From Fragilaria crotonensis (taxonomy: Eukaryota; Bacillariophyta; Fragilariophyceae; Fragilariales; Fragilariaceae), in NCBI GenBank assembly GCA_022925895.1, contig JAKSYS010000122.1, positions 49,589-113,588 on the forward strand: a stretch of 64,000 nucleotides of DNA. The letters run 5' to 3'. The notes under the pieces were generated by a model, which saw nothing but the letters and a program-made list of their open reading frames with translations, was not told the DNA's origin and did no database searches. Each line of letters begins with the position of its first letter. Position 1 is the stretch's first letter. The translations under genes and the position numbers were made by a program. Shown here one piece after another: positions 26,075-63,389 of the stretch.

Positions 26075-26846
26075 ATGTCGGATCCGACGAAACCGAATGG
26101 AGGCGACAACAGCGCGTTGTACGTTGGTCTTGTTGTGGGTGTCCTTGTCTTTTATGCCGTTTGTGCCATTATTCGTTGTTCCTTGGTGAAACGAGCAATG
26201 ACGCGGGAACGTGTGCGACTAGCGGAACGGCGTGCTGCCCTTCGGGCAGTTCGAGAGGAATTGCAAGTCCGCAACGCCGAGGGATTGGGACGACAAGATA
26301 TCCTGTGGCATGCGCGAGTTTTGACAATACTCTTCCCGGAGAAAGTTACAGTCACTGAGACTGTTACCACGATGGACGATGCAGTAACAGCAACAAGTGC
26401 TGTTGCTGCTGATGCACATCATTTGATGTATGATCCGGAGACTCAACGATATCATTGGACAGATGAATTCCTTGCGGATCCCACCATTCAAACCTGTTCC
26501 ATTTGTATGGAACCTTTTGGTACGCCATGCGAGTGTCTGTTGTTTCTCCAATCAAAATAGGAAACTTATCGTGGTTTCTCACTAATGTTTTTTTTTCACA
26601 CGTTGCTGTTGCAGAGCAAACCGACGATGTGGTGACTGGTAGATGTGTCCACCATATCACTACGATTGCATGATGAGTTGGTTGGACACAAAGCTCTATA
26701 AAAATGATTGTCCCTACTGTCGCCAAGAATTGTGGACAGCGTCAGTGTATGATGAAATTTTGCGCCAACTTAAAGAAGCGGACAAGGATGTTCATGTGGC
26801 AACACCTGCACATTGCAACGAACAAGAGACTTTGGGACGTCAATGA
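26075..26846 (+). pseudogene. RING-H2 protein 5, frame-shifted in the RING domain
   Basis: Exon 26075-26519 and a second exon from about 26615 to 26846. The protein begins MSDPTKPNGGD, has a hydrophobic helix (LYVGLVVGVLVFYAVCAII), then a basic helix and ILFPEKV at the place of the IFPGQT motif. The first intron of the sister genes is absent here. CSIC-MEPFG ends the exon at a GTACGC donor. After a TTGCAG acceptor the frame reads EQTDDVVTGRCVHH, but one base is missing near 26650-26657. Only the next frame continues as YHYDCMMSWL and CPYCRQ. With the indel allowed for, CVHHYHYDC aligns with CGHVFHREC, so all zinc ligands are present but split. Either a recent pseudogene or a base-call error. 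Confidence 0.75.
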
Positions 26847-33800: not shown

Positions 33801-35938
33801 AGTTCCGACGGCGGCACCAATTCGACTTAGCACGGAGAATCTACTCCAGAATATTCCATGGGGAGATACGCTGGCATCAATAGATCCAACACATACCAGA
33901 TTTTATGGAATGAATGCTAGTAATGGAATTCAGCTCGATAGAGAAGGAGGTCAATTTACCGAGTACTGTAAGCTCCACGCAGAGACGCAGGCAGACATTA
34001 GCGGAATCCAAGAACACAATTTGGATACAACACAACCGAGATTGCGAAGAATTATGTACGACACCGTGCGGAAGCATTGGAAACGTAGCACGTTTTCCCA
34101 TGCTAGCACGCCGATTACATTTGCAAGCCCTTATAAACCAGGAGGCACACTCCTTTTATCAACGGATAGCATCATTGGCCGAGTCGTGGATCATGGCTCA
34201 GATACTTGGGGTAGGTGGGCGTATCAAAGTCTGCAAGGGCGTCAACGTATAAAAGTTACGTTCATATCGGCGTATCAAGTGGAGCAGAAAGAAAAGATAG
34301 CGAGCCTCGCAGCGTCAGCGTCAATGGACGATCAACACAAAGCTAAGATCCTTCGGAATATTCGAGTCTCAGAGGCCATCAAACGAGTCTATGACAAGAT
34401 TCGCGCCTTCCGTAACACAAACACTCCAAAAGGCATCACACAAGTTGAAATCCCGCGGAGTTTTGGCATCAGTTTGCATTATACATCACATCATGATCTA
34501 TACCATGATGCGGGTTCCATTTCAAGGACAAATGGCATGCGACAACAAAGCCATTGTTCAACAGGTCCAGCCATTCTTTCTGATACACTCATCTGACGAA
34601 CATCATCCCGTACAGCCCGCAACCGTGCATCTGGACCCCCTCTCCCCAGAATGGGATGTCTTGAATGAAATATATCACACAGTTAGACATACATGGTGTC
34701 ACACAACCCTCGAACACATAAAGGGCCATCAAGACAAAGACACAGCGGTAAATGATCTTCCATTGCTAGCCCAACTTAATATTGAGGCAGACCAGCTTGT
34801 TGCAGGCCACCATCAGCAGATCCTCCCCGATCCGTCTCCTCGCGCATATTTGATGGAACACACAGGTGCACATTTCCATTTATCGACAGGCACAGTTACT
34901 TCACAGTACGATCCAACTATTCGACGCGCATACACCAACCCCATGAGTGTCTCATACTTGCAAGCTCGTTTTCAGTGGACACCAGAGGTCTTCGCATCAA
35001 TTCATTGGGGGGCGCATGGCACCGCACTCCGCGGCCAAAGAGTATCTCATGTTCACTTCACCAAACTCGTGTATGATTTGCTTCCCACCAATAAACTTCT
35101 ACATCGCTACAACAGCAGCAGCCATACCTCGAAATGCCCATGTTGCGACCTTCAAATTGACGAGACGCGCGACCATTTATTACAATGCTCGGCAACAGAC
35201 GCATGGCGAGAATCGTTCCTGACATCCCTTCGCAAACGATGTGGAGAACTGAACACCTCTCCTCGGTTACAAGAATATTTGTTTGTCACTATCAGAACCT
35301 GGTTAACAGACGGCGAAGTTCGGGCCGTCGACGGATTTCCAAGGGCCTTCCAGCAATTGACAGAGTCTCAATCCGCCATCGGGTGGCGGCACGTGTTCAG
35401 CGGCCGATTTAGTGTGCAGTGGGCAATAGCTCAAAGTTGTCATCTCGAGCAGGAAGATGTGGATCAGCCGACGACAGCTGGAGTTCAATGGCTAGTTGAA
35501 ATCATCACGACAATATGGCAGCAATGGCGCGAACTCTGGAAACATCGGAACAATATCGTTCATGGGAAAGATGAGGCAGCCCAGCATCAGATACAGAAGA
35601 GAATTCTCGAGAATCGGATCCATAAAGTTTATGAGTTGAAGCATCGCGTCGAACCGAGCCTCAAACACGTCTTTACCTCCACGGCACAATATCACATCGA
35701 CAAAGGCAACACACACATGACAAATTGGTTGGCAGTACACGAACTAGCTGCTATAGAAAGTGAAGCAAAGGCTACCTCACGCGCAATACAGGGCACTCGC
35801 TCTATTCTCTCGTACTTCGGCGGCGGCGGTGGCACAGTACCAAGTTTAAAAAAGTCACCTGCAAGTCTTCTCTCAGACTTGCATGTGACCGTGCGGGTCG
35901 ATTCCGGTACCTCCTGGCTAATGCTGGCAGCACGTTAA
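33801..35938 (+). pseudogene. Element 2 polyprotein: endonuclease and RNase H, no reverse transcriptase
   Basis: The first part resembles an AP-type endonuclease N-terminus: GMNASNGI supplies the Asn and ADISGIQEHN the Glu of the active site. It then jumps to a pre-RT linker (KRVYDKIRAFRN) and, at about 34445, straight into RNase H (RGVLASVC, ACDNKAIVQ, IKGHQD, LNIEADQL). The whole reverse transcriptase is therefore deleted. From 34391 one frame runs to 35938. It contains a zinc-binding module (CPCCDLQIDETRDHLLQC) and a tail with a Trp/Arg-rich helix (WQQWRELWKHRN) and a Gly run. An earlier deletion also fused ORF1 to the endonuclease near 33800. Confidence 0.75.
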
Positions 35939-45672: not shown

Positions 45673-47439
45673 TTAATCTGCCTGCTCAAAAATTGTCGTA
45701 ACAGTGCATCCCAAGACATCGAACATGGCACCAATAAACTGAAGAAGAGAGCATAGGATGATCAGTTAGCGATGAAGGTTTCAAAATGTCCCGCGAAACA
45801 AAGGCACACACACACACAAGTCCGTGGACGGCCGCCAAGCAGGAATTCTATACATACCTCATCGAATGTGGGATTCCGGGTATCGTCGGCGTCATCATTG
45901 CAATAACAAACATTATTGAATTCTGGTAAACGCCGGACGTTTCCATCACCTCCAGTATCAAGACTTGCAGCAAACATAGTGGCTGGAAGTTCAGGATCAA
46001 GCAACAAGGTTCCAATACGACAATCTCGGCAAGTATACTCAACTATGAAAAACATGGAATCACCATTCAACCCGGAAAAGGCAACCGATGCAACAGTTCG
46101 AAATTCTGTGCTGCAAAACTTGGACAACAAATCATTCAACGACGTCTTGATCGCCACGGCGATGAGATCAGAGGTTGTAGAACAACCATTCGCATCAAGG
46201 GACAGGAAATTAAAGCGAGTGATCATCGTACCCGGACAACTCTCGTCCGTGATTCCTTTCACCTTGGCAACCTCCGCATCAAGAGAAGGAATGTTAGTAA
46301 AGATATAATCATCCAATTGATCCGCCAAGTCGGAGTATGTCGGCACGTCGGCCTCCCAACCAACCGGACAGGTGCAACTGTTGGCACTTGTGACGAGGGT
46401 TCGTTCTTGTGACTTGCCGCCGCCGACAAGACCACGGCTTGGTTTCAACTGGCGACGGCGTCTTGAGGCATCATTTCTCAACAACCTTGACCCCGATGAG
46501 CATGCCTTGCATTTAAAGCTCACATTCACCTTGACAGAAAGCCTGGTGGCGAGATTGCGTCGATTTCGATTGGAGGGGGTGCTCTCGGCATCAGTCAAGA
46601 TGACTTCCGCGACGGCACCAACGACAAGATGGAAGGAGGGGTCGCACACCGAGGCGGCTGGAACGTTGAGAGTATTGTACGATACCAAACACCCCGCGCC
46701 AGGCTAACCAGTTGTTCAGGCGTAATTGTTTCCTGATCAAAACGACAAGCTGGAGGACGATTGACGTTTCATACGTGTTCCCACCAGTGCATCCTTGGTT
46801 GATGTCGGACCATTTCGAAGCCGGTATAAGACTGTTGGCCTTTGCCAGACTCTTCAACACATTGTTGTAAGTGATAGTGAAGTTTCCTGCGGAAAATAGC
46901 CCTGCAGATAAGTGTCGCCGGTCATCAACTTCGGGATTTAGAGCAACGTCCTGTGAATCGAAGACATTGAGCATCCTTGTTGGGGCATCGTATCGGAAGA
47001 GCGTCGAGTCGCTGTCGCATAACTTGCACGTGAAGGTGACATCGAACGATAAGGTGATCTCGTCACCACTGAAATCGGATGGAGAAATGCTATCAGGGAC
47101 AAACTTGATGTTGGTAACGCGTAAAGCCAGGCTTTTACGTCCACCTCTGGAAAGAGATCTCTTGACAGATTGGTTGTAGGCGACGACAAAGGCTTCTTTG
47201 TAGATGAGAATCTTCTTGGAGCTCACATCGCTCTGTCTTGCGCCCCAGAGTGTCAAGTCAGCTCGACGTGTGAACTTCTTGTTTTTGTCAAGTTCACGAC
47301 TAGTGGGAGTACCTCTGTCCAAGCGCGTCCCACCTTCTACCGGTAGTGCTTGCGAGAAAATAACGGACAGCAGCACTATCAACTGAAGCATCCTAACCCT
47401 CATTGACTTCTTCATACCACACTTGATGAAAATCGACAT
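45673..47439 (-). pseudogene. Secreted CxxC-module protein, copy 1 (two frameshifts)
   Basis: The start is the ATG at 47439 (MSIFIKCGMKKS) with a signal peptide ending near PVEGG. The large exon runs to 45858 with a GTATGT donor. The last exon is 45673-45738 (FIGAMFDVLGCT...EQAD), joined at the same codon as in copy 2. Three modules each end in a CxxC: TFTCKLCDS, VSFKCKACSS followed by RRRRQL, and YTCRDCRIGT. A Cys pair (CYCN) follows near the end. Compared with copy 2, one base is extra near 46735 and the frame shifts again near 46690, so about 20 residues in between (QETITPEQLVSLA) are read in a third frame. Function unknown; secreted or cell-wall associated by inference. Confidence 0.7.
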
Positions 47440-47490
47440 GGTTGTCTCGCTCTTGACAGTCTCTATGGCTACCGGTAGATAGCGATGTGA

Positions 47491-47518
47491 GATGATGAAG
47501 ATGATGATGATGATGATA
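47491..47518 (+). repeat. (GAT)n microsatellite
   Basis: About nine GAT/GAA triplets in a row, just upstream of copy 1 of the secreted family. Confidence 0.7.
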
Positions 47519-47677
47519 ATGGGTTTCTTTTGCTCTAATAACGCGCGAGTCTTGGTAAAAAATGAAAGTAACTTTCCGCGTGTCTATTGTTGGTATGCGC
47601 TCCACTGGAGTGTTACTCAGCTATCTTTGAATGCTTCGTACTCAAGTATCAGCATAGAGGATTGTATGCATGTATGA

Positions 47678-47685
47678 TACATGTA
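47678..47685 (+). repeat. 8-bp target-site duplication of the hAT element, left
   Basis: TACATGTA, itself a palindrome, is present on both sides of the element (also 51565-51572). Eight bases is the hAT hallmark. Confidence 0.85.
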
Positions 47686-47906
47686 CAGGGGTGTCCTATT
47701 TAAGGCGGGCGCCTTAATTTTGGGCCTAAGCGCCTTTTTGAAGCCTCAAAATCGCGCCTTAAATAAGACCCTGTAGATTCTACGCTACAAACATAGGAGC
47801 AAGTGGAATTGTACGACGAGTTGTCTCGTATGTTTGTACTAGTGCTCGTTGTTGGCTGCTGCTCCGCGTTTTCATTTCAAGCAAAATGAGTATCTTCCTA
47901 TCATCA

Positions 47907-50402
47907 AGAATGGCAAAAAGAAAGAAGGGCCCCTCCTCGTCTCCAACATCAAGCACATCTCCAACTGGTGCTTCGGCTCGATCAAGCGGATATGTGAAGG
48001 AGAATGATTTCAAGTTCGAGTCAGTGTTGCATCTCGTGTGATTCACACAGGTGTAGTCAATGGGCTTCGCTGTCGATTCTGCATTGCATTTGGCCGAGAA
48101 GACAAGGTGGGAGCAAAGCGTAAGACAACAAGCCTTGGGCAGTCTTGGTTAGCTCCATTTCGGTACGATAACATTGAAACTCACATGAAGACCCAACATG
48201 CAGTAAAGTGGGCAGAGTTCGAGGAAGCAAAGATTGCATGGGGAGGACTAGCATGCCAGACTCGACTGCAGGAGTGTGACAACTTTTTCTGCAGAATCAT
48301 GGCAAGCGAAGCAGCTCAGTGAAGGGACATTTTCCACATGGCAGTGGGAGATCTGCTGGTGCGCTGCTGGGGAGCAACACAACACAGCGACAAGAATATG
48401 TCTTCATCATCAAGAAAGGAATTGTTGACGACATTATTGGCGACATGTTTTATTGTCCTCCCAAGTTTTGCTGGTTGGAGGCAATGCACAGTCAATGGAT
48501 GAAGATGATATCAACATTTATGGAGATGAGGACGAGCCAGCAACAGATGAACGTGGTGATCGAGTAGTTCCTACATTCGGCAGTTGTGCTGAGCATGATG
48601 CAGTGATTGCCGATCGACTCTCAAGCTATCAAGAAATGAAGCGACGAGCCATGTCAATCTTTGAGCGACAAGAAGACCTATTTCAGGTTGAGAATGATGA
48701 CAGTCATCATTGCAACGAGACTAGTGTTGAAGTAGGTGACGGAGCAGCACAGCAGCGACAGTCATCATACCAGTACATAGCATCTATCTCCAATACCGTG
48801 GTCTTTGATCTGGTCATTGGTTACATCATGTGGAGCTTCGTTCCGGATGGCAAAAACATTCTCCACCATACTGCCGTTGTGTGTGGGACTAAGGATGTCT
48901 GTCATCGCGGCGACATCAGCAAGATGGTAAGGGTAGCATGTGCTGCCAACCTTCAGAAGATTTCTGAACTCTTACAAGAATCTTGGGGTTTCTCCATCGC
49001 TCTTGATAGTGCCACCCATCAGAGCACCTCATACCTTGACCTACGATTTCGGTTGTATAGTAAAAGCATCGCAAGATCTACAATGTCCATGGTTGTGCAT
49101 CTTCCGCTACATGACCGTCACACAGGTGAAGTCATGTTCAATATGTTGACGAAGTTTCTTGACGTCCTGTGTCCCAATTGGAAGGTTTCGATGCTAGGAG
49201 TTGCAACTGACGGAGCAAGAAATATGACAGGTCGTGCAGTGGGTGTTGTGACCCGACTTCAACAAGCAATGCACCCGAAGTGTCCCATGCTACGAATTTG
49301 GTGTGGTGCACATCAACTTGACTTGGTGATGGAGCACGTGATGAAGAAAGTGGTAAACGAGTCGTTCTTTTCAATTATGCTCTCATTCATCACTCACCTC
49401 AGTCGTCAGCAGAAACTTGTGGCCGACATGGGGACTACATGCCCTCGAGTTGTCAACCGCTGGTTGTCTACCTACAAGGTTACGAACTGGTTTAAACTGC
49501 ACCGAGCTGAACTCCTTCACTACATCGAGAAGAGCAATTTGAACGCCGCTCCACCTCGCATTTGGTGGGTATATCTTGTCGCTGTTGATGCTTTCACGAA
49601 TGCAACGGCAGTAACCTTCAAGTATATTCAAGGGTCGACAATGCTTATAAACCAGCAGAATGCAGCTTTTGAGAAGCTCGTTGCGACACTGGTAGAGGAT
49701 GTTAGAATTGATGGTCCACTTAATGATGAGGCGATCAACCTTCTCAATCCAATAACATATGTTATCAACGGGTCGTTTGCTGTTCTCAAGGTGAATGTTC
49801 GTGAGTTTCTTGTTGGCCTTGCTAGTTGGGTGGAAGACCTGATTGAGGAATCGGACCCTGCAGTTCAGGCCAAGTTGATACATGATGTTGGAAGCCTCTT
49901 CACTGTGGCATGTGATAGGATAACCAAGATATGCGTTTTCCGAGAAGCTGACAACCGTCCTTATGTGGCGGAAGACTTGTTGCCTCCTGTATTGCCGCCA
50001 AAATTGGTTACAACACGTCCTGGGGATTTCCTTCGGCAGGTCTGTGTCTACAATCATCGTCTGCAGAGTCGGTACTCAAATGAGCAGGTTGACATAATTG
50101 CAGACGAGCACAGAGCCCTGATCATGCACTACAGGACAGATGATGTTGTCAAGCAGGCAATCGATTCCCTACGTCCAACGTGCTCATTCGAAGAGAATTG
50201 GCGTGTTCTTGGCAATGCAAGCTTTCCAAACTTGATCGAGTTCTGTGGAGTGATTGCGACCCTGTTTCCAGGCACTTGCACGGTTGAGTCTGATTTTTCA
50301 ATCTTGCGATGGGAAAAGGATGACTTCCGCAAGTCACTCTCGGATTTTGGTTTACAGGCAGTGCTGCAGACAAAGCAATACAGAGCAATTCAGGAAATGT
50401 GA
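47907..50402 (+). pseudogene. hAT transposase with frame-shifted N-terminal third
   Basis: It begins MAKRKKGPSSSP (47907). The frame breaks near 48020, then a BED-type zinc finger follows (RCRFC and ETHMKTQH, about 48066-48220). There are further breaks near 48280-48470 around KKGIVDDIIGDMFY. From 48453 one frame runs to the end (50402). It contains the RNase H-like core: SIALDSATHQ (first Asp), GVATDGARNMTG (second Asp) and IWCGAHQLDLVME. The C-terminal hAT dimerisation block follows: FPNLIEFCGVIATLFPGTCT, SDFSILRWEKDDFRKSLSD. The core looks complete; only the DNA-binding end is damaged, by about three indels. Confidence 0.85.
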
Positions 50403-50712
50403 AGTAGAAGATGTGCGTGTAGCTGTCAAATCATTCTAGTAGTAGCGATGCCATTAGTAAAATTGACATCGACTTTAACATCTGTCAAAGAAGAGTGCAA
50501 ATTTATCAAAAGATCCACAGCAAATGATGAGCACTAAGAAGGACACAACCAATTCATGCAAACTGTCAGAGCGGCAGTGGCATTGCAGCAACCGATTCTG
50601 ACCGTTGTTCTCTTCAACTGATAACACGCGTCGCTCTGAGCGACTTAATTGAAGAGATTCATTCCACTATAGTATACAAACCTCACAGAATGTAAGCTGG
50701 ATAATCATTGTC

Positions 50713-51329
50713 TCATGACAGGGTGTAGAAGTCAACAAACACATTCGCTTCAAGTGGCTTCGGGCACTTCGGCAAGAATGAACCACTCTGACTTCTCACG
50801 GGGAGCCACTCACGCTTTGTGCATCTTTGTTGCCAATATCTCTGACCGCAGCCAATCATCTCGTTAAGTTCAAGTATTGCAATATCCATCGCAGAGTCAA
50901 TAGATCCAGGGCTGCTGATAGGCTGCAGTAGACGTTCGCCACCAGTTAGCATTTCACACGGAGAGTGCGGCAACTGCGGTGAAGAATGTTGTTTCAATGC
51001 AGATCAGCATGGTACCGGCAGCATATTCAATTCAATCGACCGGATGCCTTTCTCGTTAGTAATGAATGCGTGCAAAACTTGACTGACACAATGCCGATCA
51101 AAGTAGTGCGCCATTGATAATTTGAGGACTGCGTTGACAAAAAAACGATGAAATCCACGAGCCTTCTGCCCATGAATGTAAAACGTATTGCAGCTTCTGG
51201 GCAGTGGGAGAAGCTGAATGGGAATGTCACACGCTGGAATGCCAGCGGGACGCTTGGAATTGTCTTGAGGAGCATCATTGTCTGAAGAGCAAAAGGCACA
51301 ATCTGTGAAGAGGAGATGCCATGTTGCAA
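50713..51329 (-). pseudogene. Unexplained minus-strand frames inside the hAT element
   Basis: Two frames (51329-51027 and 50997-50713) with protein-like composition, e.g. ARGFHRFFVNAVLKLSMAHY and QRYWQQRCTKREWLP when read across frames. They could be a second gene of the element or a captured host fragment. I do not recognise the family. No ATG start is evident for the first. Confidence 0.3.
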
Positions 51330-51564
51330 TGTTTCACGAAGTGTTCTTGTGAAGCATTGTGTCAGTAGTCAGTAGCCTGAACGACGAAGTTTGCACTACA
51401 GTCACACTGTACTGTCGTAAACCTCAACTCTAAACCCCCAAAACCCTAACCCCTAACCCCACCGCCTTACACCGCCTTTTTGAAGGTCTAAAAAAGCGCC
51501 TATATTAACTAATTAAGGCGCTGCTAGGCGCGCCGGCCCGGTCGCCTTAAATAGGACACCCCTG

Positions 51565-51572
51565 TACATGTA
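51565..51572 (+). repeat. 8-bp target-site duplication of the hAT element, right
   Basis: TACATGTA, identical to 47678-47685. Confidence 0.85.
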
Positions 51573-52600
51573 TGAAAATGTAGTTGTACCAGGTACTCCA
51601 GTTCTCTACCAGTGTACTCCGAGATTACATAGAGAATCGAGAGTGACCAGTTTTTCAGAGGCATCGCTTACAACCGCTCTCTACTAGCTAGTATGGTACT
51701 TGTAATTGTTCCACTAGGAACAAACGGACTTTCATACCACATATGACTATCAACGATGAAATGACCGCCTTTATCCTACAGTAAAACAAAAAATGCTGAA
51801 ACACGTGCCTACTACACAACTTACCTGGTCAGGTCCTCTATAACGCAGATCGTCAAAAGGAGAATGTTCCGAGCGATCACTGTTTTGTCTCTAGTAGGGT
51901 TAGCGGGAAATACCGACCGATTCAAGACCTTTCCCGCAATCCCTTTTCTGCTGCGGGAAAAATCTTGAGTGTTTCCTGCAACGCCAGTGAGTGAACGAGC
52001 AGCGTCCTGAACTTGGCCGACGTGGAAAACCCCGACGGCGAACCTCTTCAGATGCAAGAGGCAGTACTCCTATCTCCTATGTAGTTTGATTGCAACTCAG
52101 TACTATGCATACAGTACCACATAAGAATGGCTTACTAGCACAACTACGCCCGGGTGCAATGAAATGCTTGGAAGAGTTGAGGGATGTATATTTCGGTGTC
52201 GAACGTTTTATTTTTACAAATTTGAGAGTGATTTTTTGATTCTCCTCGCACATCAAAAATCTGCCACCAAATGGTGACCACAAAAAAGGTAAGTTCACCT
52301 TTCTATTCTCGTTGTTGTCATTGTCAATGATGTTGTCACAGTCTAACAAGTTCATTTGCTACTGTTCTTTGCTATTACTATTCTTCGTTTGTTACATCTA
52401 AGAGTGTTGCCTTGCAAACGCTGTGGTTAAAATCGAGTGTGCAAGGGTGCATTTTGAACGTTTAACCAGCTTCTCCATGTTGATGGGATTGTCTGTCACC
52501 AGCCGTGCGCTTTTGTTTGGTTTGCAATTTTCTTTTCCCTGTCGGTTCCACCAAATCATATTATAAGAACACCAGATGTATGCCCTTGCTCATCTGGAAC
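51573..52600. other. Intergenic, no supported gene
   Basis: GTAC-rich at first (51580-51700). Two related words, TAGCGGGAAATACC and TGCGGGAAAAATC, lie near 51900-51965. Nothing codes convincingly. Confidence 0.45.
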
Positions 52601-52616
52601 AATTGTCTGATTTGCT

Positions 52617-52880
52617 CTATTTTGAACACCTTTTCTCTTGAAGGCACATTCTGATGATGGTTTGAAAGTTGTCTTTTTCTTGCTTCTGTTTCAAGAATGA
52701 TACATGACGGCAACCGTTCTTGGTGCATCCCTGCCGTGAATACTCAATCCCCTCTCCTGCCTGCTGAAGCTCACAGTGGCCTTCTTTTGGTGTCTGATCA
52801 ACAAGAACCCCCATTTCCCTTCCCATTGACTGAATGAGCATCTCCTCCTCCTCAAAATCAAGGCATTAATGACTGACAAT
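52617..52880 (-). pseudogene. DDE transposase fragment (minus strand)
   Basis: Reads CLDFEEEEMLIQSMGREMGV, then LVDQTPK, then HCEL-QQAGEGIEYS and KQEKDNF. These are ordered blocks of a DDE transposase family common in diatoms and other algae. The downstream catalytic part is not preserved. It is inverted relative to the neighbouring fragment at 53.8-54.8 kb. Confidence 0.6.
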
Positions 52881-53799
52881 AGTGAGATATACTTCACAGG
52901 AGGCTTACTGTATTGTAATTGAACAAGAGATGCCATTCAATAATAGGAAAGATCATTGCAGTGACAATATGGATCAACTTGCCACCGTCCATATAAATAC
53001 ATCAGGAATAAAACATTCTGCAACAATGGAATTTTCATTTTTGCAAGATGAAATCATTTGGCTTCTAGCTAGAGTAGGGGAAAGAGACAAACCTGCCTTC
53101 CTGGAGGCCCATCCTATCTATTGTCATTACCGTGATGAAAGAGTATGGAGTGCATATGAATCTCTTTGAGCTTTCAATCAAAATGACCTCCACAATACAA
53201 TAGTAAAGTCACTTGTCATTGGCCTGCAAGGACAGGAGCGAGAAAGTGATTTCAAAGGAGAAAAGTTGAATCTGTTGGAAGAGCACGGCTTGAGCTGTCG
53301 TTGCCATGCCACAACTTCCCATTGGATGTTTCATTTTGGATTCTTTTGATATGAAATGCGTCAAAAGGGATGTGATGTTGACGGACACGAGAAGAAAAGC
53401 AAAGGTTGAGTGTTGGTGGGACTTCTGTGAGCGCTATTTGATGCTGCTTGAGCACCATATGTTTCATTGGATTCAAGTCAGAAAGGAAGAGACCGAGAAG
53501 CTACAAGCACTAGGCAAAGTCACAATGAGCAGTGGACAAACTTACCGGCAACACAATGGTTGACTAGTCAAAATCTGCATAGAATTTATGAAGCAAATTA
53601 ACAAAGAAAGTGCATTTGGAGGCAATGTCAGCGTATGATCGAATCCAGAAAAGAATCCTATAATTGTGTTTGGACAAAATGATCATTGTAATTTGAAGCA
53701 GAATCCTTCACTGACTAGAGCTGGAATGGGGCAAATTGCATTGCAAGCAGGCACTGGCTGCTGGTGCCAAAGAGCCTTATTGGAGTGATGATCTCAGCA

Positions 53800-54830
53800 T
53801 TCAATTCACGCCAGTTTGGGTATGGAATGGCCTTATAACCAACAAACTCCATTGCATGACTGCAGAGAGACTAGGAAAGGACAGCAGCAAGGAAGAAATG
53901 TGAGAGGAAATGAACTCAAACAATCATTTACCATTAGCCCCTTTGTTCTGGAAAAATGGTCCTGCAATTGGAAGACTGCACGGATGTTGACAAGACTCTC
54001 TACTATCCTCAATATGACTTTCTAGCTATTTCACTTTGACCACTCTTGCAATCACAATCAAATGCCAGACCGATGATGCACTGCAAGTAAAAGGAATGAA
54101 CACAGGGGAGGATATGGGGGTGAGCAAAATATCACAAAGAAAGAAAGCATAATCAAGGGTGTCGATGGTTACCTCGGGGTACACAGCAATCAAAATTGCG
54201 AGCTCAATGTTGGTGACGTACCATCCATGGCCTTTCTTCCAAGTGACAATGGATCTGACTGGATGATCCCAGATGAACAACACCAGCAAACAAGGAAAGA
54301 TCATTATGGAACAACACTGAAATCACAAAGGAGTACACCAAGCCACAGCTGATCAGAATGCTTCAGCAAAAAGGCATCAACAACCTCAAAGGAAGCAAGC
54401 AACAGATCAAGAACATCATAGACCGCGCAGCAGGCATCTCCCTTTCTGAACAAAACAAGACATCAACAAACGCCGGGAAGGAAATGCGAAAGGAGGGATG
54501 GAGCAGATTCTTAGTATGGAGCAAGAAGGATGGGCCCATCAATCCCAGCCAAGATTAAAAATCTTATACAGTCCATGGAAAAATGATTCAATGGAAGCAG
54601 TAGGGTTGGACAAGAATCTTCAGTACTACCTCATGTCCAACTTCAAGGGTTTTAAGGCCCAATAAACAATGCTTCAAATCAAAGCCACCAAGGAGATGGG
54701 CCTGTTCATGGATCAAACACCAAAATGCCACTGTGACCGTGCTGGGGAAGGGATTGAATACGTCCAGGTGAAGCAGTATAGTAATCAAGATTCCAAAGAG
54801 TCAAGTTGTATGACATCTATTCTGCGATGT
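53800..54830 (+). pseudogene. DDE transposase fragments (plus strand)
   Basis: Pieces in order across several frames: RNVRGNELKQSF with PFVL, then YYPQYDFL and an FDHS-like Asp-His motif (about 53.99-54.05 kb), a SAP-like helix (MLQQKGINNLKGSKQQIKNI, 54358), EGWSRFLVWSKKDGPINPSQ, and finally ATKEMGLFMDQTPKCHCDRA followed by GEGIEY (about 54.67-54.77 kb). There are many stops and frame changes. Same family as the fragments at 52617-52880 and about 4.1-4.6 kb. Confidence 0.6.
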
Positions 54831-55168
54831 CATTTCGTTAGGTTGCATTCTATTCGCTTCCAAGCTCACACCTCGCCATACAACCAAAAACCCAGAACCC
54901 GTCCTAAGTCATGATGTCGTAAACTTGTGTTGTAAAAGTGGAAATGAGTCATCTAATCACATATATTAATGTATACGATGGTGTCCAACACTCTCATGTC
55001 CTTTCCCGTGTACTGTAGTCGTCACCATCACGAGTTAAGTCTTGTTTACTCTCCATCGCCTCACAGATGGGCGCCTGCGGAGAAGGTTGTGACCGTTCAC
55101 CTTCAACAGCCTATTCCTTCTTCGTAGTCTTGGCGATTTGCAAGTCCTTGTCAGGCTCGCACTTGACC

Positions 55169-56936
55169 TTACCTATCCACCTCCTCAACAATAGACGTTA
55201 GCGTGCATCCCACGGTATCGAACATGGCAATAGCAAACTGACGATGAAGAAGTGAGTTGGATGATCGGTTAGCAATGAATCGTTCAAAATGTCTAGCAAA
55301 GAGCACTATTACAAGAAGGCATGGCAGATCGGAATATTCAATGACATACCTCATCTGTTGTGGGGATCCGGGTATTGTCTGCGTCAACATTGCAGAAACA
55401 AACATTATTGAATTCTGGTAAACGCCGCAATTGGTTTCCATCGCCTCGAGTTTCAAGACTCAAAGCCCGTGTAGTGAATGGAATTCCAGGATCAAGCAAT
55501 GAAGTTCCAAGAGCACAATCTCGGCAAGTGTAAAACACTGCGAATATTGAAAGATCGACGATGACGCCGTCAAAGACAACCGATGCCACAGTTCGAAATT
55601 CTGTGTCGCAAAATTTCGACAACAAATCATTCATCGACGTCTTGACCGCATCAGCAAGGAGATCACCGCGCGTAGAACAACCATTCGCATTAAAACGCAA
55701 GATATTTTTGCGAGTGATCATCGTTCCAGGACAGCTCTCGGTCACAACCTCGTCCACCTTGTCAACCTCCGCGTCAAGGTCAGTTATCTTGGTTGCGATA
55801 TATTCATCCAATTTATCCGCCAAGGCAGAATACGTCGGCACGTCGGCCACTGAACCAACTGGACAGGTGCAACTGTTGGCGCTTGTGACAAGGAATCGTT
55901 CTTGTGACTTGCCAACTACAAGATCACGGCTTGGTTTCAACTGACGACGGCGTCGAGAGGCATCATTTCTCAACAACCTTGACCCCGATGAGCATGCCTT
56001 GCATTTAAAGCTCACATTCACCTTGACAGAAAGCCTGGTGGCGAGATTGCGTCGATTTTGATTGGAGGGGATGCTGCCGCCATCAGTCTCGATGACTTCC
56101 GCGACGGCAGCCACAATGAGATGGAAGAAGGGGTCGCACACAGAGGCTTTTGGAACGTTGAGAGAGTTGTACGATTCCACAACACCCTGCGCCAGGCTAT
56201 CCAGTTGTTCAGGAGCAATGGTTTCCTGCTCAACAAGAAGAAGCTGGAGAACGATTGATGATTCAAAAATGTTCTCATCGGTGCACCCTTCGTTGATATC
56301 AGACCATTTCAAAGCCGGAATAAGACTGTTGCCCTTCTTTGCGAGACTTTTCAACTCGTTGTTGTAAGCGATTGTAAAGCTTTCTGCGGTAAACAGCCCT
56401 GCAGATAAGTGTCGCACGTCGTGAATTTCAGGATGGAGAGAAACGTCCTGTGAATCCAAGCCATTGAGCTTCCTCGTTGGGGCATCGTATCGAAAGAGCG
56501 TCGTATTGCTGTCGCATACCTTGCACGTGAAGGTGACATCGAACGATAGGGTGATCTCGCTGGTGCTAAAATCGGATGGAAAAATGCTACCAGGGACGAA
56601 CTTGACGTTGGTGACTGCTAAAGCCAGGCTTTTCCTTCCACCTTTGGAAACAGATCTCTTGGCAAGTCTGTTATAGGCGACAACAAAGGCTTCTTCGTAG
56701 ATGAGAATCTTCTTAGAGCTCACATCGCGCTGTCTTGCGCCCCAAAGTGTCAAGTCAGCTGGACGTGTGAACGTCTTCGTTTTGTCAAGTTCACGAGTAC
56801 TCAGAGTTGTGCTGTCCATTTGCTTGCCACCTTGTACAGTTAGTGCTTGCCAGAAAATAACGGACAGCAGCAGCATCAACTCAAGCATCCTGACCCTCGG
56901 TGACTGCTTCATGCCACACTTGATGGAAATCGACAT
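55169..56936 (-). CDS. Secreted CxxC-module protein, copy 2 (intact, two exons)
   Basis: Exons 56936-55350 and 55237-55169 (intron 112 nt, GTATGT...CAG) give about 551 residues. The start MSISIKCGMKQS follows the copy 1 start; the frame upstream has only a TTG. Signal peptide: LELMLLLSVIFWQALTVQG, then GKQ. Module 1 (about 55-165) ends FTCKVCDSNTTLF. Module 2 (about 190-350) ends FKCKACSSGSRLLRNDASRR followed by RRQL. Module 3 (about 375-505) ends YTCRDCALGTSLL. Then CFCN and the tail FAIAMFDTVGCT. Each module has a helix with a Tyr-Asn or similar (VVAYNRL, IAYNNEL), then two or three beta-strands leading to CxxC. The tetra-arginine after module 2 could be a proprotein-processing site. No known domain is recognised. 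It is the only undamaged member here, so it defines the family. Confidence 0.8.
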
Positions 56937-57074
56937 GCTTGTCTCACTCTTAACAGTCTCTAAGGCGGCCGGTAGATTGCGACGTGATGATATTGATCGC
57001 GTGGTGATGATGCTCTGGAAACGCGCGGGTCTTGCCAAAAAATGGATGAAATTTAGTGCTTTCGGCGTGGATAA

Positions 57075-58010
57075 TGGATCGTGTACTGTCTAGTACTGGT
57101 AGTACTCCTCTAGGATTGTACACTCACCTTATAGTACAGTACTGCGACCTCGTCTACAAAGAAGTAATATGGCACTATACGTACGTCTAATTCCTGTAGA
57201 GAACCAGTACATTGTGCGTACATACAGCACCATTTGGGAACACGTGCCTGGGAGTATCCGACTATCCTGCTATGTACTCGAATCTCAATCAGATTCGTCT
57301 CATCCGTTACGGGGATACTGTTAAATAAATTTCTTCCAATTCTCGGAGTACAAGAGTACTCGAGTACTCGAGTACTCGAGTATTCGAGTACGTCTGCAAA
57401 AGTCTACCTTGCATTCACGAATGTCGCGTTCAACCTTCAGTCATGTAGATCATGGATGTTTCCAGGACAATTAGTCGCAAAATGCCTCATTCGCAAATAA
57501 CCATGATTACCGCCAAAAACGGGTGTTATTTACAATACCAAAGTCTACGTATTACTGTGCATATACTCGGAGTCTCAATACACACAAGTTGTTTATTTGT
57601 AACAACAGGCAATCAGGTTCAAATGAGTTCGGAAGTTTGTATCATTGTTGGCCATACTTCAATATATCATGAATCATGAAGTATCTGAGCACCGACGTCT
57701 GTGTGCATATGGACTCGCGACGTTGGAGTTCTGAGACTCTGCTTGCTGTACAATGCAGTATTTAGAATGTGTATGCATATGTTCACTGCCCTCTGTTCAC
57801 AGCAAACCTCGAAGAAACATAGAGTACTTGTATCTTGTATGTATACTGTAGTATTAACGTACATAGAACTACTATGCATACGGTAGAACTTAAAATGGTG
57901 CAATCAGAGATTTCTGGGTCAAAAGGTACAGTACAGGTGAACGGAGGGGCCTGTAAATAAAAACTGAGCCCAAAATCAGAAGCTGACAAAACGGACCATC
58001 ACCTCCTGAC
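57075..58010. other. Intergenic, palindrome-rich
   Basis: No gene. It includes a run of GAGTACTC palindromes described separately and further GTAC-rich patches at 57080-57140 and 57830-57880. Confidence 0.5.
57352..57390. repeat. Tandem GAGTACTC palindrome array
   Basis: GAGTACTC recurs about every eight bases four or five times (AGTACTCGAGTACTCGAGTA...), so the whole array is self-complementary and could extrude as a cruciform. The last units are slightly changed (GAGTATTC). Confidence 0.75.
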
Positions 58011-58013
58011 GAC

Positions 58014-58066
58014 CTATACCCGACACCCTATACCCGACACCCGATACCCGATACCCGACACCCGAC
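58014..58066 (+). repeat. 7-bp minisatellite, unit CGAYACC
   Basis: CTATACC, CGACACC, CTATACC, CGACACC, CGATACC, CGATACC and CGACACC follow one another without a break. A 7-nt C-rich unit is reminiscent of telomere-type repeats but has another sequence. Confidence 0.8.
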
Positions 58067-58079
58067 CAACTGTATTGCT

Positions 58080-59580
58080 AAATCAGATGAATAGCTTTGC
58101 GGGTGGGGATAGGGGATTGATGGGGATGCTCGTACATCTTGCCACTTACACTGGTGGGGGAATATGCACTTTTTGGTCGCAGTATTGAAACTTGAAACCC
58201 ACCTTCAGGTGCATCGGGAGTACTTTTACACGCTTAATGTAAGCCTGTACCCAAACAAAAATGGCTTGATTCCCAAGTTACTCCACTTGCCATCATCTGC
58301 CTGGTGTCCCTGCCACGGTCGCGTCACTCGACATTTTGGGGCATGAGAGGATGCCTTCGACCACATTCCAAAGAATTCAAATCGGCTTCATTTTGAATGC
58401 AGCACCCGACGATCCTGTTAAATGTATCTGAGCATCAATTGAGGGTGCGTGTGCAGGACGACTTTTCATCTTTGTCCCCCTACGAATCTTTTCTATGGAA
58501 AAATTCTGGTGACGACCAACGGCGACAGTCTTCACAGTCGCCCGACCCCTGCCGCCCTTTGGGATGCTCGTTCTGCCACGAAGCGCAGATTCCAAGAACC
58601 ATGTCATGGAAACGATACCACCCCATTCGTCTGGCTTGATACCACACCCGCGCACAAAGTCATTCTACTGACATCAAACATTGCGCTAGCAGCCCAAGCA
58701 AGACTGGAGTCCGCCCATTGGGGAGCACTCCAGTCATGGAACCATGGGAATTGTTCAAAACGACCGAAGCACGCGGGCGTGGTACAAAGCACGAATCATA
58801 CCAGATAAGGTTGCCATAATACGAGACGGCCAATCGGAAGGAAATGTGAATCAAGTACTGGACAGAGAAACCCTTGGTAATGCCATACGAAGCCTGACCT
58901 AGTTGGGTTGGGATCAGACATGCCATGCCCGAGACGTGTTCCAGGACCAATTACTAACACTTGGAATGGTTCATCTGCTTTGTTGTATCGCCACATGTTG
59001 GCGTAGTGGATGCTTTCCATAAAATTGTATCCTCCTGTTGTAACCCGAAGAAATTCGATGATATTCGATGCCGCATGCAGTGCGTCAATGTTAGGTAATG
59101 ACGGACAATTTCTTCATCTGGAATTCGTTTGGCGCGATGGCCATCAATTTGGGAGGAAGCAAGACTTCAGCACTACCGTAGGCAGGTTTCAGAGAAGAGT
59201 GCAGTGCTGGCCAAGGAGGAATATCACCGGTTTTGACCATTCTGCTATATCTTTGCGCTGAGTTTCAATGTTTCTAAAGATTCCCTGTGGCGAACCTTTT
59301 TGGATCCACCAAAGCAAAAAACTAGTACGCCTTGATACTTCCACTAGTCCATTGATCAATTCAGCCTTCTGACCACTCTGATCCGGAAATGTAAACTGCT
59401 CATGCTCGGATATGATGATGGTAGAAAGTGTCAAGTGAAATCCAAATCTTTCCGGCGCATACCCTCATGTATCATACTTCAAACTCAGTGCGGTAATTGC
59501 ACTCGGTAAGGGCTGAGAGTTTACAGTACAGGGTTAACATTAAAAGACATTGACATCAATGGCCTTATCACGTATATAAT
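58080..59580. other. Possible gene relic, otherwise non-coding
   Basis: On the minus strand the translation reads plausibly in patches and in changing frames (e.g. EFLRVTTGGYNFMESIHYAN near 59.05-58.99 kb; KPDEWGGIVSMTWFLESA near 58.6 kb). I do not recognise the family and there is no continuous frame. Probably a decayed gene or transposon piece. Confidence 0.35.
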
Positions 59581-62500
59581 TCAAACAAGGGTCGTAATAA
59601 AAGGAGTAACCCAGTCCTCCTGCGAGTTTTCAACCGTTATAACTGTGAGGCCAGCAGTAGTAATGCTGGTATCAAATAGGGCCCTCGACTGTGCGACTGT
59701 CGACGTTGTCATGCTTCCAGAATTATCAATGAAGAGACCAACAAACGTTATGTTGGTGGAGGGGCCAGCAATGCCTGCAAGATTACAAATGGTAAACCAA
59801 TCCGATGCTGCATAGCCGCTCACATCGTCTCTGTTCACTATCGCAAAGGTCGTCTTTGTACCAAGTTCAGCAACGAAGCCTTCTGGTTGAAACAGTCCGT
59901 TCCAGCCCGTATTAGGGTTTTGAGGTTGGAGCAAGCAAAAGGGACGGGATGGAAATTGTACCCTAAAGCTGTCCCATTTTGCTGTGATTTCTTCATCACT
60001 GAAATTATTCGACTCGTCGATGACAGCAACGCAGGGGACAACTTGGTCAATTGCCTTGCAATTGCCATCGGTAACGTCACATGCTTGACCGGCTGGACAA
60101 TTCTTTGGAGAGGAAAAACATCCAGTGACAGGATCGCACATGTCGATCGTGCAAGCATTCTTGTCATCGCAGGGGTCAATTGTGTGCTGACACCCTAGAC
60201 CGTTCTCACAAGTGTCGATCGTACAAGGGTTCTGGTCGTCACAGGAGTCAGGTGCCACACAAACTGGAGGATTGGCTGTCCCTTGCTCAGATATTTCGTA
60301 AAGCGTCGCCCCGATTCGGCTTTTGAGTTTATCTCCCAATATATCTACCAACTGTTGATAAGGTATGCGTGCCAAAGGATCGTTGAGACTTCCAGTGAAG
60401 AAAGAATATGACTCGTGAATAGGAATAGCATCGGTACTTACCTCACTCTCGCTTGGTCCGCGGGAATCAATAGTGCCGATGTCGCAAAAGCAGGTGTCGT
60501 TCACGCCACTTAAATGCCGATTCGATCCGCTTACCCCAACTGCAATCCAATCTGCAAGCGCGCGACGAGAAGTAGCATTCGAAAGCAGCTTCATGTCAAA
60601 TGGACAGTCTCGGCAAGTGAAGTCAACGCTGAAGAAATAGATCCAAGAAGAACAGTCGCCAGTACCCCTTCGACGGCTGAGGAATGAAACGGCTGTGACA
60701 TTTCGAGATTGTCGATTGCAAAATTTGGCGAGCAACTCATTCAACGACTCCTTCATCGAATCCTCTGTTATCGATTCATGGTCGCTCATGTTCATCGGGT
60801 CGCCCCGAAGAGCACGCCCTTAGAGTCATGTACGTTGTGCGATTCTCTACTGGGGCAGAACAGTTGTATTCGACGACCTCACTTGTAGAGCCCACACTTG
60901 CGACAAAATTATTCACCTCCGGATTAGTAGCCTTGAGATCTTCGAGTGTCTTGTTGAATGCATCATTGAATTCGAAGCGCGATGGAATTTCGAATTCTGG
61001 TGTACCCGCAGGAGGTTCGGGACATGTGCAAGTATCGACACCTGCACTGATTGCGAAGAGACTTCGACGTGCCATGTGATGCACTGGGTCCAATCTGCGA
61101 CGTCTCGACGCATCATTTTTCAACAACGCCGCTCCCGACTTGCAGTTTTTACACTGATAGCTCACATTCACTTTAACCCTGAGCCTTGTCGACGTCGTTG
61201 CGAGCGCTCGTTGACGCACATTGCTGTAGACGTCATTGCTGCTCACGAGTTCTGCTTCAGCGGAGATGGCTACGCGGAAAAATGGATCGCAAATTGCGCT
61301 GCTATCATAAAGAGAATTGACAGTGTCAACAACGCCTTGCGCAAAACTGGAAAGACCACTTGGAGTAATCAGAGTCGGGTCGCCAGAGCATTCAACCAAG
61401 AATGACGTTTCAATCACCTCACCACACGTTAGTGCTGCCGACGACTCAGATAAACCGTAGAGTGTTAAGCCAGATGCGCTCAACTTAGTAGTCACGAGAC
61501 TCAAAAGCTGGGAAGGAGAATAACGCTGGACGGACAGCAAGTAATGAGTTTTCCACATACTCAGTACAAACACATGATACAAACAACGCAAAGACGTTGT
61601 GAATACATACCACTTCCGACATTCGCCGGCCCTTATTCACCGCATTCACATCACAAACACAAGTCTCTCCTAACGAACGCCGACTCATTCCGTCGGCGCC
61701 CGTTTCTGGGGACCAAGCCAACAGCGCACGGCTGCCTGTAGAATTTGAGAGGATTTTACTGTCCACCTCACAATCTCTGCAATTGAAGTCGACGACGAAC
61801 AAATATCGAGTTCCCGTGCATCCTTCTCCATTAGTGACTGTATCGATGACCCGAACGTCAGTGATGGCCAACGACTCTTGATCGCAGTTCTGCACAATTA
61901 ACTCATTCCACGAAGCTTCGGTTGCATCCGCCACGGCTTGCTGTTGCTCCAAAGATAGCGCACTGGAGCCGCTACAGGCTTGCAAGATCAGTCCAGTTTG
62001 ACGCGCCTGCTGCGGTGGCGTACAATCGAACTCGACGACCTCAGCTACATTGCCCACATTCTTGACAAAGTCAATCTTCCCCTGGGCTGTGAGAAGGGTG
62101 ACGGTTTCCTGGAGAGCACCGCTGAATTCGGATCGCGTTGGTACTTCGAAATCATTTGCACCAACGGGACAATAGCATTCACCAGCACCAACAGTGACTG
62201 CGAGGTTTCTTTGCTCATCGATGTGACGATTGTCCGATTCCAACTGGCGACGCCTTCTACCCGCATCATTTTTCAACAAAGTCGTCCCCGATGAGCATCC
62301 GTTGCACTGATAGCTCACATTGACCTTGATGGTTAGGGTAGTGCTGGCAAGTTCTCGTCGATTGAGAGCGCCCGAAGTAAGAAGTTCGGCGTTGGAAGAA
62401 ACGGCCACCCGGAACAAAGAATCGCAGCTTCCGTCGCGCAAGACGTAGAATGAATTGATTGTTTCCAAAACGCCTTGTGCCAATACAGCAAGGCCCTCCG

Positions 62501-63389
62501 ACGTGGCAGGCTTAGTTGAGTCACCAGTAAATGGGATGATGAACGATGTTTCAAACTGGTTAAGCTGGTTGCTACAGCGTGCCAGGTATAGTTCTGTCCA
62601 TTTCCAAGCTGGAAGGAGCGTACCGGCAGCGCTGCCGACCGCATTCAAATTCCCGACTCTCTTCTCCATCTTCTTCAGCTCCGTATTGAACCGGAGAGTA
62701 AAGCGTTCGGGCGTGAGTGGCAAGCACGTTTGACAACTCCTACTGGGTTTCTTCTGTAGGTTTCTTGAACTGGCTGGACTTGTGGTAGTATCGATTTCGG
62801 AATCAAAATCATCGAGTGCATCAGCACTTGTCGAGTGAGAATAAAAATGTTGCTCAGCCGCAACTTCCCTGTCCCATCCCTCCTCCGTAGTGAGTCGTCG
62901 TTTGGCAACAGTGTTCTTAAACAGCGTGGTATTGCTATTGCACCACTTGCATCTAAAGGTAACTTGGAACACAAGCTTGAGAACCCTGTCAGAGAAGTCT
63001 GCCTTTGGTGACGTAGCATCGTCAACGAATTTCACAGCAGCGACGGTTAAAGGGAGTTGACTACTGCAGACGCCTTTCCTGAGTCTATTGTAGGCCGTCA
63101 GAAACGTTTTTTCGTAGGTACGGATTTTCGTTGGGCTGAGATCATTCAGTCCAGCATCCTGGAGGGTCATGGCAACTCGGCGGTTGAGAAGCCTCTGTTG
63201 ATTCGAACAAACATCCGCAGCGATGCCACTTTGTTGTCCTCTTCTTATCATCATCGGGTATTCGTCCGCGATGTCCGCTTTCATTAGCTGGTTCGCCAAG
63301 CCATGCCACATGACGAGAGAAAGCATCAATAGCATTAGCAATTGATGCGCCCAAGGCCTGCGAGAACGTGAGGTTGCAAAAAAACCCAT
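59581..63389 (-). pseudogene. Secreted CxxC-module protein, copy 3, with CTDC repeats and VWA-like end (one frameshift)
   Basis: Exon 1 is 63389-61611, the intron 61610-61526 (GTATGT...CAG), and exon 2 61525-59581. The start is the ATG at 63389 (MGFFATSRSRRP); the signal peptide is HQLLMLLMLSLVMWHGLA. Five modules end in CxxC: FRCKWCNS, YQCNGCSS (then GRRRRQL), FNCRDCEV, YQCKNCKS (then SRRRRLD) and FTCRDCPF. Modules 4-5 repeat modules 2-3, so the gene grew by internal duplication. Then come two Dictyostelium-type CTDC repeats (DDQNPCTIDTCENGLGC and DDKNACTIDMCDPVTGC, about 60243-60118). The C-terminal domain contains FIDNSGSM (about 59727), the DxSxS metal-binding MIDAS of von Willebrand A/integrin I domains. 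One base is missing near 60790, where the frame changes after ACSSG. A GTAAGT at 60441-60436, where the sister genes have their intron, is read through in frame. Likely an extracellular adhesion or matrix protein of about 1,250 residues. Confidence 0.7.

What the first reader, a model, noticed from the sequence alone, without database searches (positions are those of the whole stretch)
45673..63389. A locally expanded family of secreted modular proteins with repeated CxxC-ending modules, one member gaining CTDC repeats and a VWA-type MIDAS
Seen: three genes on one strand, all with signal peptides, sharing 3 or 5 modules of the form helix, strands, [YF]xCxxC, LL, basic cluster, and sharing an intron at the same codon. 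Copy 3 duplicates modules 2-3 and adds two CTDC repeats plus a DNSGSM motif. Known: CTDC repeats and MIDAS-type VWA domains occur in extracellular and adhesive proteins. Inferred: a diatom cell-surface or secreted-matrix adhesion system. I recognise no named domain in the repeated modules, so the module itself may be undescribed.
Basis: partly seen in the sequence, partly recalled or inferred. Interest (0 to 1): 0.75.

Follow-up and report, generated by a model that had tools for sequence, protein, structure and literature searches.

The report
Diatom surface proteins sharing phage-tail domain
Three neighbouring genes, probably from a diatom, encode secreted proteins built from repeats of an unnamed small domain, and one of them ends in a domain that this search otherwise found only in viruses, where it sits in tail-fibre and other virion proteins and is often cut in two halves on separate genes.

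Summary
(1) Only copy 2 is an intact gene. Copy 1 has two single-base deletions and copy 3 a frameshift in the duplicated block. That exon of copy 3 is flanked by phase-0 introns; skipping it leaves an open 849-residue frame. (2) The module was cut at the wrong place. Re-phased, the repeat is beta-alpha-beta-beta-(CxxC, linker)-alpha-beta; a low-to-moderate-confidence AlphaFold2 model has ferredoxin-like topology. No Pfam, NCBIfam or PDB sequence match reached significance. (3) The 'VWA' does not behave as a plain VWA domain. The last 153 residues match 35 phage records (named ones are cyanophages) and many viral contigs, but no plasmid or bacterial genome contig searched. No Pfam family covers it. 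Its model (pLDDT 92) matches two cyanophage proteins at TM 0.83 and 0.79; I recognise no VWA chain among the 50 PDB matches listed. Strand order and conserved acidic residues suggest a circularly permuted VWA-like fold. In 42 of 87 distinct viral loci it is split near one point over two genes, also in isolate P-SSM2. Most likely function, inferred: extracellular adhesion or assembly, the last domain being a metal-dependent docking module.

The parts
45673..47439 (-). copy 1: paralogue with domains D1-D3; intron 45739-45857 (119 bp); two 1-base deletions relative to copy 2 near 46746 and 46687 break the frame in D2
   Evidence: 84.6% DNA identity to copy 2 over the first 690 nt of the coding region
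55169..56936 (-). copy 2: intact gene, 551 aa, signal-peptide-like N-terminus, domains D1-D3; intron 55238-55349 (112 bp)
59581..63389 (-). copy 3: exon 1 63389-61611 (D1, D2, D3 core), exon 2 61525 (or 61507)-60442 (end of D3, D4, D5 core), exon 3 60351-59581 (end of D5, CTDC x2, C-terminal domain)
60803..60820 (-). frameshift inside exon 2 of copy 3 (exon length 1084 = 1 mod 3); retained exon gives a stop after 842 aa, skipped exon gives an open frame of 849 aa
56274..56771 (-). re-phased repeat D1 of copy 2 (first beta strand to last beta strand)
55725..56276 (-). re-phased repeat D2 of copy 2; AlphaFold2: strand 2-15, helix 22-40, strand 55-64, strand 79-92 (ends in FxCxxC), helix 149-163, strand 169-178
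   Evidence: mean pLDDT 61.8; blocks of the elements 57-88; pTM 0.64
55350..55727 (-). core of D3 of copy 2; its last helix and strand would lie in exon 2 (55169-55237)
62565..63191 (-). D1 of copy 3
62013..62561 (-). D2 of copy 3
61611..62012 (-). core of D3 of copy 3
60851..61423 (-). D4 of copy 3 (45% identical to D2 of copy 3, 38% to D2 of copy 2)
60442..60801 (-). core of D5 of copy 3, downstream of the frameshift (32% identical to D3 of copy 3, 30% and 33% to D3 of copies 2 and 1)
60134..60250 (-). two CTDC repeats (72 nt apart)
   Evidence: Pfam PF00526 E 9.5e-14; repeat family D11
59584..60042 (-). C-terminal 153-residue domain (CVAVIDE...DW...DNSGSM...EDW), shared with cyanophage virion proteins; possible circularly permuted VWA-like fold

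Best explanation
A tandemly duplicated family of secreted proteins. Each is a chain of three (copies 1, 2) or, with exon 2, five (copy 3) ferredoxin-like beta-alpha-beta-beta-alpha-beta domains. Every domain carries a CxxC at the end of its third strand, followed by a basic, poorly predicted linker, in 8 of 11 aligned repeats with a CxC. I infer disulphide-linked extracellular rods. Copy 3 ends in two small Cys-rich CTDC repeats acting as a stalk, and in a globular domain homologous to one of cyanophage virion proteins. That domain has five strands; its near-invariant acidic and serine residues (IDE, D72, DW, DxSGSM, ExW) lie in the segments that follow strands 1, 3, 4 and 5, which recalls a VWA MIDAS with the two halves of the chain in swapped order. 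It most likely holds a divalent metal and binds a partner protein or glycan, so copy 3 would be the docking or adhesive member and copies 1-2 matrix members. Shown: gene anatomy, homology to phage proteins, residue conservation. Modelled: both folds. Inferred: permutation, metal binding, location, adhesion.
For: Repeats and re-phasing; predicted topology; Foldseek matches for that model include uS10, a PII-like protein and MMLI, which I recall as ferredoxin-like, none below E 1e-3. C-terminal domain: 35 of 50,697 phage records, best listed E 3e-14 (20 of 35 listed); 35 viral loci and 80 kept of 83; model pLDDT 92, pTM 0.89; Foldseek against viral models, ACG-2014j and ACG-2014i virion proteins at TMq 0.83 and 0.79. 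Conservation in dereplicated phage rows at positions equivalent to D9 50/51, E10 48/51, W23 51/51, D72 53/54, D81 52/56, W82 55/56, D106 55/55, S108 55/55, S110 52/53, E142 54/55 (whose numbers run two lower). Profile of 12 rows against PDB sequences: three weak hits (E 0.42-1.7), two labelled membrane proteins and one Ro-related protein, that I recognise as VWA proteins, all aligned over DxSGSM. Phage context is the tail-fibre locus in S-PM2 and S-RIM44.
Against: No localisation, expression or binding data. VWA kinship is weak: VWA_2 is hit by 5 of 72 rows (best E 0.0052), while Dak1, presumably unrelated, is hit by 13 (best 0.0087). The 9-row C-half profile hit one VWA-like chain (E 0.36) but a chromatin protein ranked above it (E 0.24). 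The artificially permuted diatom domain did not hit VWA. I recognise no VWA chain among the 50 PDB Foldseek matches listed. The module model has mean pLDDT 61.8 on an 11-row alignment. Copy 2 has a second hydrophobic stretch at 449-471, read here as strands of D3 and not as a membrane helix. Two of three genes are frameshifted, so the locus may be partly decaying, or the assembly may have errors.
Confidence: 0.5

Rival explanations
1. Copies 1 and 3 are decaying pseudogenes of a family in which only copy 2-like members work; the phage-like tail of copy 3 is a relic.
For: Two 1-base deletions in copy 1 and one frameshift in copy 3. Ka/Ks between copies 1 and 2 is 0.46 (5' part) and 0.51 (3' part), with 0.88 in the first 40 codons, 0.37 in D1 and 0.62 in D3; the two older pairs that could be measured give 0.36 and 0.39, two others were saturated.
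Against: Overall Ka/Ks is still below 1; the rest of each frame is open, including all of exon 3 of copy 3; the frameshifts lie in or near short homopolymers (by eye), where assembly errors are common; skipping exon 2 of copy 3 leaves an open 849-aa frame.
Confidence: 0.3
2. The C-terminal domain is an ordinary, shortened VWA domain binding ligands by a standard MIDAS.
For: DxSGSM after a hydrophobic strand; weak VWA_2 and VWA-protein hits.
Against: DxSGSM lies at residues 106-111 of 153, after three other strands and directly behind the fourth, whereas in a VWA it follows the first strand (recalled); no VWA family passes its cut-off; no VWA chain recognised among the 50 PDB matches listed.
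Confidence: 0.12
3. The repeat is a divergent SEA domain, so the proteins are mucin-like surface proteins.
For: Same beta-alpha-beta-beta-alpha-beta order in the model (SEA topology recalled); probable extracellular setting; a TNVKFVPGS stretch in D1 of copy 2 resembles the SEA hairpin (recalled).
Against: No SEA hit for any of 11 repeats in Pfam, no PDB sequence hit, no SEA structure recognised among the 50 listed Foldseek matches; the CxxC and the long linker after strand 3 are not SEA features (recalled).
Confidence: 0.2
4. The phage-like domain reached the diatom by horizontal transfer from a cyanophage.
For: Relatives found only in viruses in the collections searched; the C-terminal half falls in a 96/91-supported cluster with 36 split-type and 3 contiguous phage rows.
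Against: No other eukaryote sequences could be searched; trees rest on 84 and 57 columns with a long diatom branch, the bootstrap of the first had not settled, and the N-terminal half is unplaced; direction cannot be told.
Confidence: 0.3

Closest known systems
Cyanophage 'virion structural protein' family PHROG 29022 (S-PM2 p223, S-RIM44 gp231, ACG-2014e/i/j)
   Same: The whole 153-residue domain, same near-invariant residues, predicted fold TM 0.79-0.83
   Different: In phages it sits in virion proteins, some with Ig-like matches, at N- or C-terminus or inside, and is often split over two genes; in the window it is contiguous, preceded by CTDC repeats in an intron-bearing gene with a secretion-type start
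VWA domain (Pfam VWA, VWA_2)
   Same: DxSGSM motif after a hydrophobic strand, alternating strands and helices, acidic residues after strands
   Different: Motif near the C-terminus instead of the N-terminus, fewer strands (recalled), no family cut-off reached
Dicty_CTDC repeat (PF00526)
   Same: 51.3 bits against a cut-off of 27, two stretches
   Different: Only two copies, between the repeats and the phage-like domain
SEA and other ferredoxin-like domains
   Same: Predicted strand and helix order
   Different: CxxC-LL-basic insertion after strand 3; no sequence match
Diatom adhesive-trail proteins with vWD domains
   Same: Diatom extracellular adhesive proteins with repeated domains (passages read: PMC7335047, PMC12803021)
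   Different: vWD is not VWA, and Pfam reported none here

Membership tests
VWA domain | Match to a VWA profile above its cut-off | tested here: not met
   5 of 72 rows hit VWA_2, best E 0.0052; the L004 half scores 15.4 bits against a cut-off of 27, the window domain has no hit
VWA domain | DxSxS motif after the first strand of the domain | tested here: not met
   Motif at residues 106-110, after the fourth modelled strand; the defining order is recalled
VWA domain | Divalent metal held by DxSxS plus Thr and Asp from other loops | not testable with these tools
   Conserved D/E residues lie after several strands; no coordinates available
Cyanophage virion-protein domain (part of PHROG 29022) | Sequence homology over the whole domain | tested here: met
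   tblastn in 35 phage records, 30 with at least 80% of the query covered in one place; PHROG E 1.3e-13 over residues 25-137
Cyanophage virion-protein domain (part of PHROG 29022) | Same fold | tested here: met
   Foldseek TMq 0.83 and 0.79 on predicted models
Dicty_CTDC | Repeat above Pfam cut-off | tested here: met
   51.3 bits, cut-off 27
SEA domain | Pfam SEA match or SEA structure match | tested here: not met
   None of 11 repeats in Pfam; none recognised among the 50 listed Foldseek matches
SEA domain | Autoproteolytic GS site in the strand 2-3 hairpin | not tested
   GS letters are seen in some rows of the alignment; cleavage was not examined
Ferredoxin-like fold | beta-alpha-beta-beta-alpha-beta order | tested here: inconclusive
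   Order met in the model, which has low mean confidence

The most novel reading that the evidence does not exclude
A previously unnamed, circularly permuted VWA-like domain serves as a connector in phage tails. In many phages it is cut into two halves carried by two virion proteins (for example a tail-tube or tail-fibre-assembly protein and a fibre or short partner), which reassemble the domain in trans and so lock the parts together. The same domain serves in a diatom as the adhesive or docking head of a secreted matrix protein, perhaps after transfer from a phage.
Probability: 0.3. Interest if true: 0.82.

Novelty: new variant of a known kind. Interest (0 to 1): 0.6.

Why it matters
It would link a diatom surface protein with cyanophage virion proteins, two kinds of contact machinery met in the same waters. 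The split form in phages offers a testable two-piece assembly domain. The repeat gives a searchable profile for a protein family that Pfam, NCBIfam and PHROGs did not name here.

Tried and rejected
Plain VWA: rejected for lack of any family match above cut-off and because of motif position. SEA membership: not met. Relatives of the repeats: none for copy 2 in viral contigs and phages, none for exon 1 of copy 3 in plasmids and viral contigs (one pattern match, no relative); CTDC part in phages: none. Bacterial relatives of the C-terminal domain: two scans of genome contigs found 33 and 32 pattern matches but no relative; these scans need exact short peptide patterns, so distant kin could be missed. 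Plasmids none. Other copies of the repeat in the window: only the three genes; the next hit, at 26643-26843, has E 0.011 and was not followed. Permuted diatom domain against Pfam: no VWA. First module alignment A4 misplaced the first strand and was replaced by A5. Trees could not settle the direction of transfer. VWA control sequences for a half-by-half profile comparison could not be obtained (one search gives counts only). Literature searches showed no account of this domain or its split form in their listings; of five papers only passages were seen (PMC7335047; PMC7824862; PMC3037559; PMC12803021; PMC13056149, a reference entry), no whole text. That SEA domains, uS10 and the like are ferredoxin-like, and that a VWA MIDAS follows its first strand, is recalled.

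Full report
What is there. Three paralogous genes lie on the minus strand. Copy 2 (56936-55169) is intact: 551 codons, one 112-bp intron and a signal-peptide-like start. Two other places in it pass the same hydropathy cut, at residue 264 and at 449-453; I read them as parts of D2 and D3 and not as membrane helices (inference). Copy 1 (47439-45673) is 84.6% identical to copy 2 in DNA over the first 690 nt of the coding region, but has two 1-base deletions in its second repeat. Copy 3 (63389-59581) has three exons. Exon 2 carries the duplicated block and a frameshift; its length is 1084 nt with the first of two possible acceptors. Joined as three exons the frame stops after 842 residues, before the CTDC and DNSGSM parts; joined as exons 1 and 3 it is open for 849 residues and includes them. 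Whether the indels are real or assembly errors cannot be told here; they lie in or near short homopolymers (by eye). Ka/Ks between copies 1 and 2 is 0.46 and 0.51 in the 5' and 3' parts (0.88 in the first 40 codons, 0.37 in D1, 0.62 in D3); intron identity is 73%, upstream 73%, downstream 50%.

The repeat. The [FY]xCxxC...LL motif occurs 3 times in copy 2 and 5 times in copy 3, against shuffle means of 0.0005 and 0.0075 (2000 shuffles each). By phmmer, repeats at corresponding places match between copy 2 and copy 3 at E 2e-11 to 1e-26. First repeats match second repeats of copies 2 and 3 at 3e-6 to 7e-4, D4 more weakly (0.07 and 0.0075). Third repeats do not reach the first or second above shuffled sequences except in marginal cases. 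The best of 2600 shuffled sequences over seven queries was 0.009. But copy 2 begins with a strand-helix-strand-strand unit lacking a first helix, and ends, after the intron, with a lone helix and strand. Shifting the boundary makes three complete units of strand, helix, strand, strand (ending in FxCxxC), LL, basic linker, often CxC, helix, strand. With this phase the 11 repeats, some partial, align with N37, V88, C92 and C95 invariant. An AlphaFold2 model from these 11 rows gives strand 2-15, helix 22-40, strand 55-64, strand 79-92, helix 149-163, strand 169-178; mean pLDDT 61.8, ten-residue blocks 75-88 in the first strand, first helix and last helix, 57-79 in the middle strands, under 50 in most of the linkers; pTM 0.64. 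Foldseek in the PDB gives only weak matches, many of them ribosomal uS10, also a PII-like protein and 4-methylmuconolactone methylisomerase, which I recall as ferredoxin-like; none is below E 1e-3. No Pfam, NCBIfam or PDB sequence match of the repeats is significant. All four introns are phase 0 and lie between the linker and the last helix of D3 or D5. Exon 2 of copy 3 therefore looks like a D2-D3 duplicate set between phase-0 introns: D4 is closest to D2 of copy 3 (45% identity), while D5 is about equally far from all D3 (30-33%), although the phmmer score of D5 is higher with D3 of copy 3 than with D3 of copy 2.

The C-terminal domain. After two CTDC repeats (Pfam E 9.5e-14) the last 153 residues match 35 of 50,697 phage records (16 Synechococcus phages, 11 cyanophages, 6 Prochlorococcus phages, 2 marine viruses), best listed E 3e-14. 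Of the 20 listed, the annotated ones read 'virion structural protein' or hypothetical. PHROG 29022 is matched at 1.3e-13. In S-PM2 and S-RIM44 the gene lies directly after short-tail-fibre and tail-collar genes. No match was found in 72,556 plasmids, and two pattern scans of genome contigs found no relative. Scans of viral contigs gave 35 loci and then 83, of which 80 were kept, some the same contigs. No Pfam family covers it: among 72 rows VWA_2 is hit by 5 (best E 0.0052) and Dak1 by 13 (best E 0.0087), neither convincing. The model has pLDDT 92 and pTM 0.89: strands 4-7, 35-40, 64-69, 100-105 and 133-137, with helices between them. It matches ACG-2014j and ACG-2014i virion proteins at TM 0.83 and 0.79, and nothing in the PDB below E 1e-3; I recognise no VWA chain among the 50 listed.

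Why a permuted VWA. In a VWA the first strand is followed by DxSxS and a later strand by the Asp of the metal site (recalled). Here the DxSGSM strand, a helix and one strand come last, and the strand ending before IDE, a helix and a strand come first. D9, E10, D72, D81, D106, S108, S110 and E142 are near-invariant in the phages (its window numbering is two lower because leading residues were trimmed) and each lies in a segment following a strand of the model, D81 twelve residues behind it. This is an argument from order and conservation, not a structural proof.

The split form. Profile search of all 111 loci then held found 35 loci with the contiguous domain (one protein with two copies), 58 with two halves in two open frames, and 18 with the C-terminal half only. 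Merging loci whose sequence is contained in another leaves 87: 29 contiguous, 42 split, 16 C-half only. In the 18 C-half-only loci the frame with the half begins within 1.3 kb of the locus start, so a partner may be missing. N-halves end at model position 57-64 in 53 of 58 loci (68 in three, 84 in two); C-halves begin at 50-60 in all 76 rows. C-halves end within 9 residues of the protein's end in all 76; N-halves within 12 residues in 51 of 58, while in 7 loci (5 distinct) 153-343 further residues follow. In L004 the N-half ends a gene that matches tail tube (PHROG 45, 1e-35), and the C-half is a separate 93-residue gene starting at once. In L009 the N-half ends a gene of PHROG 3304, 'L-shaped tail fiber protein assembly' (5e-50), and the C-half ends a 575-residue protein with an Ig-like match, after one intervening gene. 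In the isolate P-SSM2 the halves are at the ends of neighbouring genes PSSM2_216 and PSSM2_215. Reassembly in trans is my inference from this pattern.

Descent. Trees of the halves (84 and 57 columns) place the diatom C-half in a supported (96/91; bootstrap not settled) group of 40 rows with the 36 split-type and 3 contiguous phage rows, and leave the N-half unplaced. Transfer from phage is possible but not shown; no other eukaryotes could be searched.

Function. A Cys-rich repeat protein with a secretion-type start and a metal-site-like head, homologous to virion proteins of which several lie in tail-fibre loci, is best read as an adhesion or matrix-assembly protein. Location, metal and ligand are untested. 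Published diatom adhesive proteins with vWD domains are a different family (passages in PMC7335047 and PMC12803021).

Noticed in passing
L004:556-1894; L009:1431-5246; L112:2490-3678 (P-SSM2): In many viral contigs and in P-SSM2 the domain is split into two halves on two separate virion-type genes, near the same point; possible reassembly in trans.
   Followed up: partly
window 48429-50402 +: Transposase-like ORF between copies 1 and 2; I recall the hAT type, Pfam did not confirm it.
   Followed up: no
window 34301-35935 + and 9868-13987 +: Possible retroelement remains: the first has a zf-RVT match below its cut-off (E 3.1e-4); for the second the likeness is recalled only, and the two pieces tested had no Pfam match.
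   Followed up: no
window 22629-23924 -: Ankyrin-repeat protein (Pfam Ank E 2e-39).
   Followed up: no
window 997-1710 -: ORF contains an ASAFAP-like presequence, as in diatom plastid-targeted proteins (recalled; sequence).
   Followed up: no
window 26643-26843 +: Weak module-profile hit (E 0.011) in an otherwise unexamined ORF.
   Followed up: no
window 59584-60042 -, residues C4 and C86: A cysteine in each half of the domain is common in phages too (45 of 48 and 49 of 55); in split phages they would lie on two different proteins.
   Followed up: no
L108:5659-8307: One viral protein carries two copies of the domain.
   Followed up: no
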